A DNA stretch of 64,000 nt, from positions 1-64,000 of the forward strand of contig FOBR01000007.1 of assembly GCA_900109895.1 (NCBI GenBank), read 5' to 3'. The position numbers were made by a program, and so were the translations under genes. The stretch is from a bacterium A37T11 (GTDB taxonomy: Bacteria > Bacteroidota > Bacteroidia > Sphingobacteriales > Sphingobacteriaceae). Under the pieces are notes generated by a model, which ran no database searches, had not been told where the DNA came from, and saw nothing but the letters and a program-made list of their open reading frames with translations. This document shows positions 11,238-45,979 of the stretch, piece after piece. Position 1 is the first letter of the stretch, and every line of letters begins with the position of its first letter.

Positions 11238-11837
11238 TTATAAGTGAAAATAAAGTAGTGAAGCCATGTGCAATACAAGGAAAAATAAAAGAAATCTTAG
11301 TTTTTTGCGTAAAATAGTAAGGGCATTACTGACTTGTTTGGATACGGTTTGTTCTGAGAGCTGCAGTTGGTCTGCAATTTCTTTATGGCTGAGACCTTTT
11401 TTACGGCTTAGAATAAAGATCTCTCTCATTCTGGCTGGTAGTGCATCAATCTCCCGATTGATCTCTTCAGCGAATTCATGTTCTATAATGTGATTTTCGG
11501 TGTCGTTATGTCCTTCATTCAAGTAGTTCTGCAGCGATTCCAGGTATTTGGTAGATACTTTTTTATGGGCTAGCAGGTTAAATATATGGTTTCGTACGGC
11601 ATTATACAGATAGCCTGAAAGGTTGGAAGTTATGAGCAGGCTTTCCCGCTTGGTCCATAAGGTAGTGAACACTTCCTGCAAAACATCTTTTGCTTCTTCA
11701 AAATCCCCTAACTTTTTATAGGCATGACTTTGTAATACGTATTTATACCGGTGATATATTTCGGCATAGGCAGCATGATTGCCTTGTTTTAATAAAACAA
11801 GTAGTTTTTCGTCAGGATATGAAGTGTATTCTGCCAT
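11238..11837 (-). CDS. ECF RNA polymerase sigma factor (locus 1)
   Basis: This sigma-70-family factor of 199 residues has region 2 (YAEIYHRYKYVLQSHAYKKL, then DVLQEVFTTLWTKR) and region 4 (LPARMREIFILSRKKGLSHK, EIADQLQLSEQTVSKQVS), plus a short hydrophobic tail. I use the ATG at 11837 (MAEYTSY). The longer TTG start at 11858 would overlap the -7 promoter element at 11856-11863. It should activate the downstream fecR-susCD locus after the signal passes through SusC and FecR. The C-terminal hydrophobic end (LRFLLFFLVLHMASLLYF) is frequent in this Bacteroidota subgroup. Confidence 0.92.
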   Translation of the reverse strand: MAEYTSYPDEKLLVLLKQGNHAAYAEIYHRYKYVLQSHAYKKLGDFEEAKDVLQEVFTTLWTKRESLLITSNLSGYLYNAVRNHIFNLLAHKKVSTKYLESLQNYLNEGHNDTENHIIEHEFAEEINREIDALPARMREIFILSRKKGLSHKEIADQLQLSEQTVSKQVSNALTILRKKLRFLLFFLVLHMASLLYFHL

Positions 11838-11855
11838 TTTCTTTCCATTGCTGAC

Positions 11856-11863
11856 CAAAGATA
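11856..11863 (-). promoter_or_regulatory. Bacteroidota -7 promoter element for the locus 1 sigma gene
   Basis: On the minus strand the sequence reads TATCTTTG, an exact match to TAnnTTTG, the -7 element recognised by the primary sigma of Bacteroidota. It lies 18 nt before the ATG at 11837, leaving a leader of about 10 nt. No convincing -33 TTTG was seen. Confidence 0.5.
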
Positions 11864-11938: not shown

Positions 11939-12442
11939 AAGTCTCCAGGAATGGGGAGTAAGTCTTCTAGATAGTTTAGGAAGTCTTCTTATTGGTTTAG
12001 GAAATCTCCGGAAAGCCTCCGGAGATTTCCCGGGTGTTTTTTATGTTTTCCTATACAGTTTGACCGTTTTCCTAAGCGTTTCATGAAAACGGTTTAACCG
12101 TTTAGGAAACTTCCTGGAAGGAGCTTCTGTTTTCCTGAAAAGACAAAGAAGTTTCCGAAAACTTCCGGGAAAACGGTTGGAATGTTTCGTAAACTTCCTG
12201 GTCAGTTTTTCCGTTTTCCGGACAGATTCGGGAAGTTTCCTAAACCTTTCCGGAAAACGGTTCACGGACTTTTCTGACTTCCTGAAAGGTTTTTCCGTTT
12301 TCCTGAAAACCTATCGAAGCCTCCGAAGGTGTTTAGCAAGCCTCCGAAGGTGTTCAGGAATTCTCGGAAGCGATTCAGGAAGTTTCCGAAACGTTTCAGG
12401 AAAATGGTTAAAAGATTTTTCCAACTTCCTGAAAGTTTTTTC
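11939..12442. repeat. Array of 24 degenerate tandem repeats of exactly 21 bp
   Basis: The whole gap between the sigma gene and the sulfatase is a tandem array with a strict 21-bp period (11939, 11960, 11981 and so on to 12422), with no insertion or deletion. A further weak unit can be seen on each side. Units fall into types beginning AAGTTTCCGAAA, AAAACGGTT, AAACTTCCTG or CGTTTTCC, most ending TTTTTC or TTCAGG. Unit types recur in sets of four (84 bp): 12149-12232, 12233-12316 and 12380-12463. Positions 12225-12302 and 12372-12449 match at 66 of 78 bases. On the minus strand each unit reads as a heptapeptide of type PExFRKL, but with in-frame stops in the units at 12296 and 12023. No gene is claimed. 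Confidence 0.9.
12000..12030 (+). repeat. Perfect inverted repeat inside the 21-bp array
   Basis: GGAAATCTCCGG (12000-12011) and CCGGAGATTTCC (12019-12030) form a 12-bp perfect stem with a 7-nt loop. A T-rich run follows on the plus strand (GTGTTTTTTA), which gives it a terminator look in that direction although no plus-strand gene precedes it. It spans two array units. Confidence 0.55.
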
Positions 12443-12475
12443 CGTTTTCTTTATTCCTTATTTATTCATGTTGAT

Positions 12476-13930
12476 TTATTGTTTATCAATTAAAAAAGTA
12501 TCTTTATTTTTTAGGAGATACTCTTCCAGTTTATGTCGTAAACGAAGAACGACATTGGGCTTTTTGTTCGCCAGATTGTGCAGATCGTCAGGATCCTTTT
12601 TGTAATCGAACAAATAGGTCGTAACTTGGTCAAATGCCAGTTTGTATCGCCCATCGCGTATTCCCCTGAATCCAGAATTGATGTTTCCCGGAGCTACATG
12701 GCCCATAAAATATTGTGCATCGGGTCCGGTTTGTTTCTTACCCAAGAAAAATGCAGAGAGGTTATGCCCATCGGTTTTGGCCGGGTTTTGTATACCTAGT
12801 AACGAAAGTAGTGTAGGTTCAACATCGATTAGCGAAAAAAGCAAAGTTTTATCCACCCGGGCAGGAATATGATTTTTCCAATGGATGATAAAAGGTACAT
12901 GAAGAGACTGTTCAAAAAAAGTATTTTTAGATTCCTGCCCATTTTTCCCTAACGAATTTCCGTGATCAGATGAAAAAATGATGATGGTATTGTCTGCAAG
13001 CCCTAGTTTGGAAGCGGCTTGTAATAAGCGCCGGATCTGGTCATCAATACCAGTCATGGCAGCATAGTAATAACGGATGTTTTCCCGATAAAACTGCCCC
13101 CATTTTGTGTCTGCCGCATTCACAGCGGGAAAATCCACGAGTTTTTCTAAAGGGATCCTATTATAAGGCTCTACATATCGAAATGGTACTTGCTTATAAA
13201 CCGAGTGGGGAGGGTTGAAAGATAAAAACAGCGAAAATGGTTTTCCTTTTGTCCTATAACGTCCGGTGGAATCCTGTAAAAATTCAATGGCTTTGTCTAC
13301 CTCATGTTCAGGCCCCCATTGGTCAACAAAGTGGAAGGCGTTGCGATCCGCATCATTATCCCAATACATTGGGCGCAGGTGGTTGTCATAGGTTCCATAG
13401 GCATACCAATAGTCATTACCGTGTCGTCGGCTGGGTGGGGTAAATTCATTCCATTTTACGGCTTCAGCATTATTGCTGGTGGGAATATAAGGTGCATGCG
13501 GTGAGTCCAAGTGCCACTTGCCAATATATGCAGTGCAATACCCTTGTTGTTTGAGGACGTCAAACCATGTGATGGCGTTATTTGGAAGTTCTACCCCAAA
13601 AGCTGTGCTGTTAGAATTGACATTTGCATAAACGTTTGTTTTGATAGGATGCATACCCGTAAATAAGCTTGCCCTTGATGGTGAACAAAGTGGATAGTTT
13701 GCAATGGTTTGGGTTAGAACCAAACTTTGTTTGGCTAAAGAGTCAATGGTTGGTGTTATAACGGGTTCCTGATGCAGGAATCCGAGCGCTTGCCCTCGCC
13801 ATTGGTCGGTTAGGATATATATAATATTCGGCCTCAATGCTTCTTGTGCCATAACTCCCGAAATACTAAAAAATAAGAGTACTAATCCAAAAGACCGATA
13901 TAAAGAGAATGTCTGTAGGTTAATTTTCAT
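12476..13930 (-). CDS. Secreted sulfatase, FGly type (locus 2)
   Basis: This 484-residue arylsulfatase-superfamily enzyme has a signal peptide ending near VMAQ, the N-terminal metal-binding pattern RPNIIYILTDQWR, and the formylglycine motif CSPSR with Cys82 as the residue to be modified, followed by ASLFTG. FSSDHGNSLG supplies the later metal ligands. It should hydrolyse a sulfate ester on a polysaccharide or oligosaccharide; the sugar cannot be told. It lies 7 bp behind susD and is the last gene of the sigma/FecR/SusCD locus. Downstream lies the 21-bp repeat array, beginning about 34 nt after the stop. Confidence 0.9.
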   Translation of the reverse strand: MKINLQTFSLYRSFGLVLLFFSISGVMAQEALRPNIIYILTDQWRGQALGFLHQEPVITPTIDSLAKQSLVLTQTIANYPLCSPSRASLFTGMHPIKTNVYANVNSNSTAFGVELPNNAITWFDVLKQQGYCTAYIGKWHLDSPHAPYIPTSNNAEAVKWNEFTPPSRRHGNDYWYAYGTYDNHLRPMYWDNDADRNAFHFVDQWGPEHEVDKAIEFLQDSTGRYRTKGKPFSLFLSFNPPHSVYKQVPFRYVEPYNRIPLEKLVDFPAVNAADTKWGQFYRENIRYYYAAMTGIDDQIRRLLQAASKLGLADNTIIIFSSDHGNSLGKNGQESKNTFFEQSLHVPFIIHWKNHIPARVDKTLLFSLIDVEPTLLSLLGIQNPAKTDGHNLSAFFLGKKQTGPDAQYFMGHVAPGNINSGFRGIRDGRYKLAFDQVTTYLFDYKKDPDDLHNLANKKPNVVLRLRHKLEEYLLKNKDTFLIDKQ

Positions 13931-45867: not shown

Positions 45868-45937
45868 AAAAAAAGGTTTTTGGGATGGTTACCTTGGTTG
45901 TGAAGCAGCCTCGGCTCCAAACCAAAAACCTTTTTTT
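45868..45937. repeat. Intergenic hairpin element, copy 5
   Basis: Arms AAAAAAAGGTTTTTG (45868-45882) and CAAAAACCTTTTTTT (45923-45937) pair perfectly over 15 bp, although their sequence is unlike the arms of copies 1-3. The 40-nt core is more diverged but keeps ACCTTGGTTGTGAAGCAG and CCTCGGCT. It lies between the convergent YceI gene and sulfatase remnant and should work as a two-way terminator. Confidence 0.75.
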
Positions 45938-45979
45938 TATAAAAGTACTTTATTTATTTTTATAAAAGTACTTTATTTA
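45937..45979. repeat. Short tandem duplication (23-bp period)
   Basis: The 20-mer TTATAAAAGTACTTTATTTA occurs at 45937-45956 and again at 45960-45979. The second copy covers the stop codon of the sulfatase remnant. The duplication directly follows element copy 5. Confidence 0.8.

What the first reader, a model, noticed from the sequence alone, without database searches (positions are those of the whole stretch)
11939..12442. A 504-bp array of 24 degenerate units with a strict 21-bp period and no indels
Every unit boundary from 11939 to 12442 falls on a multiple of 21 bp although single units share as little as half of their bases. Ordinary minisatellites this diverged usually carry indels. 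Twenty-one bp is both two turns of B-DNA and seven codons. Unit types recur in sets of four (84 bp), and two 78-bp blocks (12225 and 12372) match at 66 of 78 bases, so the array grew by multi-unit duplication. Two explanations remain: helix-phased protein binding or DNA bending, or a decayed heptapeptide gene (minus strand, PExFRKL-like, with two internal stops). The array fills the space between a sulfatase stop and the promoter of the next locus.
Basis: seen in the sequence. Interest (0 to 1): 0.8.

Follow-up and report, generated by a model that had tools for sequence, protein, structure and literature searches.

The report
Palindromic 21-bp-spaced noncoding repeat array
Between two genes of a Bacteroidota bacterium lies a stretch of worn, non-coding DNA repeats set exactly 21 bases (two turns of the double helix) apart and alike on both strands; the same genome carries several more such stretches with unrelated sequences but the same spacing, so the spacing rather than the sequence seems to be what is kept.

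Summary
The array is real: 22 of 24 units score best exactly in phase, lag-21 matches are 10.6 sd above shuffles, and the quoted 66/78 block is correct. It is not a decayed heptapeptide gene: every frame has stops, substitutions between copies ignore codon position, and it is not unusually curved. (1) The unit profile is its own reverse complement (r = 0.83 versus 0.39 expected), so the array is alternating 10.5-bp half-sites; its 15 best inverted matches sit on one 21-bp lattice. (2) The 1.5 of 5.1 Mb scanned holds at least five further arrays with unrelated motifs, all dyad-symmetric, all period 21; no strongly dyadic array has another period. (3) Copies diverge freely in sequence but change length by whole units (126, 42, 42 bp); orthologous arrays in another genus differ by 21-bp steps, while their flanks carry 1-30-bp indels. 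It fails the REP/BIME, CRISPR, Rfam and coding-repeat tests. Best reading: a spacing-constrained, helically phased DNA lattice, probably a scaffold for a dimeric DNA-binding protein (inferred). The main rival is a neutral or selfish satellite evolving by whole-unit exchange.

The parts
11939..12442 (.). Array of 24 degenerate 21-bp units (consensus AAattTCCTgAAaggTTtagg), with a partial unit to about 12449
11995..12392 (.). Long imperfect ungapped palindrome on the 21-bp lattice (arms 11995-12176 / 12211-12392); all 15 best inverted matches share the same reflection phase
12000..12030 (.). Perfect 13-bp-stem hairpin inside the array (GGAAATCTCCGGA-AAGCC-TCCGGAGATTTCC); terminator-like on the + strand
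12225..12302 (.). 78-bp block repeated at 12372-12449 (66/78 identical, lag 147 = 7 units)
12372..12449 (.). Second copy of the 78-bp block
12085..12358 (.). Stretch shared without internal gaps with the second copy of the array elsewhere in the genome (G000:C28:218780-219052, 83% identical by BLAST)
12476..13930 (-). Neighbour: sulfatase gene whose stop lies 34 bp from the array
   Evidence: PF00884, E 4e-49
11238..11858 (-). Neighbour: ECF sigma factor gene downstream

Best explanation
SHOWN: the finding is one member of a class of noncoding, dyad-symmetric arrays built on an exact 21-bp lattice. Each unit carries two opposed half-sites of about 10.5 bp, so a symmetry axis recurs once per helical turn. 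Copies differ by whole units, and direct and inverted multi-unit matches lie on one lattice. Sequences drift and differ between families, while the 21-bp spacing is kept. INFERRED: because spacing is kept more strictly than sequence and there is no reading frame to protect, the array acts as DNA. The likeliest role is a scaffold on which a C2-symmetric (dimeric) DNA-binding or nucleoid protein assembles side by side on one face of the helix, one dimer per two turns, with relaxed sequence demands, in gaps between transcription units. No such protein was identified.
For: Phase and period. Unit-profile dyad symmetry r = 0.83 versus 0.39 +- 0.09 for permuted columns. Other arrays in the same genome with unrelated motifs, r = 0.93, 0.91, 0.81, 0.71-0.84 and 0.66, all period 21; in a lag scan of 12-69 over 1.50 Mb no strongly dyadic array had another period. 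Only whole-unit indels between copies: family 1, 51 substitutions, gaps 126 and 42; family 2, 104-106 substitutions, gap 42 only, under three gap penalties; genus g3 orthologous arrays, 59 substitutions, gaps summing to 21+21+21, whereas their flanks carry gaps of 1, 2, 1, 9, 10, 1 and 30. At the flank rate (7 indels per 179 substitutions) about 11 off-lattice indels were expected in the four array pairs (290 substitutions) and none were seen (my calculation, P about 1e-5; two pairs share one array). Noncoding: stops and dN/dS near 1. Substitutions fall preferentially in variable columns in families 2 and 3 (rho 0.51 and 0.47).
Against: No binding protein, occupancy or expression data. The motif differs in every family, which a single sequence-specific protein would not explain. 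The lattice is not absolute: the C28:191.6-kb array has a 1-bp phase shift and family 3 copies differ by a net 20 bp. The flank control is one locus only. In family 1 the column constraint is not significant (rho 0.25, p 0.28). No such array was seen in 400 kb sampled from ten other genera of the family.
Confidence: 0.42

Rival explanations
1. Neutral or selfish palindromic satellite: the arrays have no host function. They arise and spread by template switching and recombination between direct and inverted units; concerted exchange keeps every unit on the founding 21-bp lattice and makes the profile its own reverse complement. All families descend from one ancestral array whose sequence drifted while its period could not.
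For: Whole-unit gains and losses; inverted multi-unit matches all on one lattice phase; a second copy at an unrelated locus without shared flanks; motif families unrelated in sequence but equal in period; families not found in other genomes of the taxonomic family.
Against: Neutral point indels should still occur: none off-lattice in four pairs with about 290 substitutions, while adjacent flanks have them. Gene conversion strong enough to erase 1-bp indels should also erase substitutions, yet units share only 46% identity.
Confidence: 0.36
2. RNA-level element: transcribed as a 3' untranslated region of the upstream gene, it folds into a long double-stranded RNA that stabilises or terminates the transcript.
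For: Both strands fold far better than shuffles (z -8.6 and -7.9); the array starts 34 bp after the sulfatase stop; a perfect 13-bp hairpin lies at 12000-12030.
Against: Within individual dyads complementarity is not maintained (183/470 pairs, below the 214 expected from independent columns, z -3.9). No Rfam family near its gathering score. Transversions outnumber transitions between copies (31:20). One other array (C28:138 kb) lies between divergent genes. RNA stems would not require a constant 21-bp lattice.
Confidence: 0.13
3. Decayed or living heptapeptide (7-codon) repeat gene.
For: 21 bp = 7 codons; FRKLPE-like heptads on both strands; real coding heptad arrays with period 21 exist widely (ETDRKFQ-type coiled coils); an in-gene array occurs in a DUF3108 protein.
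Against: Stops in every frame of the window array; substitutions even over codon positions (17/12/22, p 0.23); dN/dS near 1 for g3 arrays; no Pfam match above cut-off; coding arrays score lower on the dyad test (mostly 0.2-0.5).
Confidence: 0.05
4. REP/BIME-type repeat mobilised by a RAYT transposase.
For: Intergenic, palindromic, alternating orientation of half-sites, clustered units (compare PMC2817692).
Against: No IS200-like/RAYT transposase (PF01797) in the genome although control genomes rang; no compensatory pairing; no single shared REP sequence.
Confidence: 0.03

Closest known systems
REP / BIME elements with RAYT transposases (PMC2817692)
   Same: Intergenic palindromic units, alternating orientation, clusters, reported to bind nucleoid and topology proteins
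   Different: No RAYT found, no conserved stem pairing, no common sequence across arrays, contiguous 21-bp spacing without inter-REP segments
Minisatellites / VNTRs (tandem repeat loci)
   Same: Head-to-tail units, whole-unit copy-number changes
   Different: Units only about 46% identical, no off-lattice indels in four copy pairs, reverse-complement-symmetric profile, one fixed period across unrelated motif families
Plasmid iterons and heptad operator arrays (own knowledge, not searched)
   Same: Repeats spaced in register with the helix, bound side by side by dimers
   Different: Several arrays of different sequence in one genome; no cognate Rep or ribbon-helix-helix gene shown; far more degenerate
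Heptad-repeat coding sequences (ETDRKFQ-type coiled coils)
   Same: Exact 21-bp period without frame indels
   Different: Coding, dyad score mostly 0.2-0.5, at least one open frame; the window array has stops in all frames

Membership tests
REP/BIME | Genome carries a RAYT (IS200-like tyrosine transposase, PF01797) | tested here: not met
   no match in own genome, controls positive
REP/BIME | Each palindrome keeps its stem through compensatory changes | tested here: not met
   183/470 pairs, below expectation
REP/BIME | Many dispersed copies of one REP sequence | tested here: not met
   one other copy in the genome, none confirmed in the 200 other family genomes searched
Minisatellite / VNTR | Tandem units with whole-unit length change | tested here: met
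Minisatellite / VNTR | Ordinary point indels accumulate with divergence | tested here: not met
   none off-lattice in four copy pairs; a net 1-bp deviation from whole units in the fifth
Heptapeptide-repeat gene | Open reading frame and codon-position bias | tested here: not met
CRISPR array | Conserved direct repeats with unique spacers of regular length | tested here: not met
   contiguous degenerate units, no spacers; a CRISPR-like array lies elsewhere
Intrinsically curved (phased A-tract) DNA | Predicted bend well above background | tested here: not met
   (wedge values from memory)
Known structured RNA (Rfam 15) | Match at gathering score | tested here: not met
Protein-bound operator / iteron-like array | Cognate dimeric protein occupies the units | not testable with these tools
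   needs footprinting or ChIP

The most novel reading that the evidence does not exclude
A previously undescribed class of chromosomal DNA lattice in Bacteroidota: dyad-symmetric arrays whose selected property is helical spacing (one symmetry axis per 10.5 bp, 21 bp per unit) rather than sequence, serving as assembly tracks for a dimeric protein that reads DNA geometry.
Probability: 0.25. Interest if true: 0.85.

Novelty: new variant of a known kind. Interest (0 to 1): 0.62.

Why it matters
Intergenic repeats are usually classed by sequence. Here several unrelated sequences in one genome share only a 21-bp dyadic lattice, and that lattice survives while the letters change, which points to selection on DNA geometry. 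If the spacing constraint is confirmed, these arrays would be natural test objects for how bacterial proteins assemble on one face of the double helix, and would explain a type of noncoding array that is easily mistaken for small heptad-repeat genes. If the arrays are neutral, they are a clean example of whole-unit, direct-plus-inverted concerted evolution.

Tried and rejected
Heptapeptide gene. DNA curvature. Individual hairpins or cruciforms under selection. Rfam RNA. RAYT-driven REPs. BLASTN for relatives in 201 family genomes gave only short chance or terminator-like hits. A collection-wide DNA pattern for TTTCC-type 21-mers returned at least 117 stretches in many phyla, but most lie in coding sequence with an ETDRKFQ-like heptad frame, so it said nothing about the noncoding class; it supplied coding controls. 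A lag-21 hit in genome G007 (L076) has no dyad and reads as a coiled-coil heptad. Ten genera sampled at 40 kb each gave no dyadic 21-bp array. Paper searches found no description of such arrays.

Full report
OBSERVATION. The array at 11939-12442 is as described. Lags 21, 84, 147, 168 and 231 stand out in autocorrelation, lag-21 matches exceed 2000 shuffles by 10.6 sd, and 22 of 24 units score best exactly in phase with the profile of the others. The 66/78 block match is exact. Mean pairwise unit identity is 0.46. It lies 34 bp downstream of the stop of a minus-strand sulfatase gene and upstream of an ECF sigma factor gene.

NOT CODING. All six frames contain stops. A second copy in the same genome (contig C28:218780-219052) aligns end to end with the window array, with 51 substitutions spread 17/12/22 over codon positions. 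Predicted curvature is ordinary and Rfam has nothing at gathering score.

ANATOMY. The unit profile matches its own reverse complement (r = 0.83; permuted columns 0.39 +- 0.09). The array is thus a run of half-sites about 10.5 bp long in alternating orientation, with two symmetry axes per 21 bp. The 15 best inverted matches inside the array all have the same reflection phase modulo 21; the largest pairs 11995-12176 with 12211-12392 without a gap. Both strands fold strongly (z -8.6 and -7.9), but complementarity inside individual dyads is below what independent columns predict. The symmetry therefore belongs to the profile and the multi-unit layout, not to maintained small hairpins.

A CLASS, NOT A SINGLE CASE. 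A scan of lags 12-69 over 1.50 Mb of the genome found further arrays with unrelated motifs: C28:139.4 kb (AACCgatAcCgGTTtaCgGtA), C28:138.0 kb, C28:191.6 kb, C24:14.2 kb (GT.aaCACAATATTGTG.ccA) and C26:0.1 kb. All have period 21 or its multiple and clear dyad symmetry, and no strongly dyadic array has another period. Searching with these found further copies at C14:136.3 kb, C10:9.7 kb and C47:16.2 kb. The families have no DNA relatives in the other 300 family genomes searched (window family). Genus g3 (G026, G002) carries its own TTTCCTTAAAGG-type family on the same lattice, with weaker dyads (0.41-0.54), partly selected by the search pattern. Forty kb from each of ten other genera showed none.

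SPACING IS KEPT, SEQUENCE IS NOT. Window versus C28 copy: the only gaps are 126 and 42 bp, six and two units. C24 versus C14: 104-106 substitutions, one gap of 42 bp, stable under three gap penalties. The G026 array and the array beside the orthologous gene (88% identical protein) in G002 differ by 59 substitutions and gaps summing to three times 21, and a G026 paralogue pair differs by 76 substitutions and 21-bp gaps. With softer gap penalties some of these gaps are split, but neighbouring pieces still sum to multiples of 21. The flanks of that orthologous pair, aligned in the same way, show gaps of 1, 2, 1, 9, 10, 1 and 30 bp for 179 substitutions. At that rate about 11 off-lattice indels were expected in the four array pairs and none were seen (my calculation). 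Exceptions exist: one 1-bp phase shift in the C28:191.6-kb array and a net 20-bp difference in the family-3 pair.

INTERPRETATION. With no reading frame to protect, a spacing kept at exactly two helical turns with a symmetry axis every 10.5 bp suggests that geometry is what matters: a track for a dimeric protein that assembles on one face of DNA. That step is inferred; no protein was found. The main rival, a neutral satellite evolving by whole-unit direct and inverted exchange, explains the layout and the copy-number changes but not the lack of off-lattice indels. RNA-level and coding explanations are weaker.

RELATION TO KNOWN KINDS. It resembles REP/BIME clusters (PMC2817692) but fails on RAYT, stem conservation and shared sequence. 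It resembles minisatellites but fails on point indels. Coding heptad repeats share the period but not the symmetry or the stops. No description of such arrays was found in the papers searched.

Noticed in passing
G000:C20:786-1879 (L102): CRISPR-like array: 36-bp repeat GTTGTGTGTACCCTACAAAATGAGGGCAATAACAAC with 30-bp spacers (period 66).
   Followed up: no
L186 5999-6562 (Dysgonamonadaceae MAG): A 26-unit dyad-symmetric 21-bp array (r 0.74) sits in frame inside a gene whose DUF3108 domain matches in two stretches, as if such arrays can expand inside genes.
   Followed up: partly
L004 3836-4195, L050 18800-19225, L098 14765 onward, L292 2277 onward: Arrays often neighbour accessory genes: PIN-domain proteins beside the C28 arrays (Pfam PF01850/PF13470), and a P-loop ATPase-like ORF (Walker A seen, family not searched) after both C24 and C14 arrays.
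   Followed up: partly
L109-L225 (many phyla): Coding 21-bp arrays of an ETDRKFQ-type heptad coiled coil are widespread in Chromatiaceae, Magnetococcales, Treponema, Desulfobacterales and Bacteroidales.
   Followed up: partly
L059 3126-4429 (G000:C29:107126-108429): Nearly perfect tandem copies (112 bp x 4.2 and 374 bp x 2.2) that look like an amplified tRNA region.
   Followed up: no
window 45934-45979: Perfect 23-bp tandem duplication TTTTTATAAAAGTACTTTATTTA.
   Followed up: no
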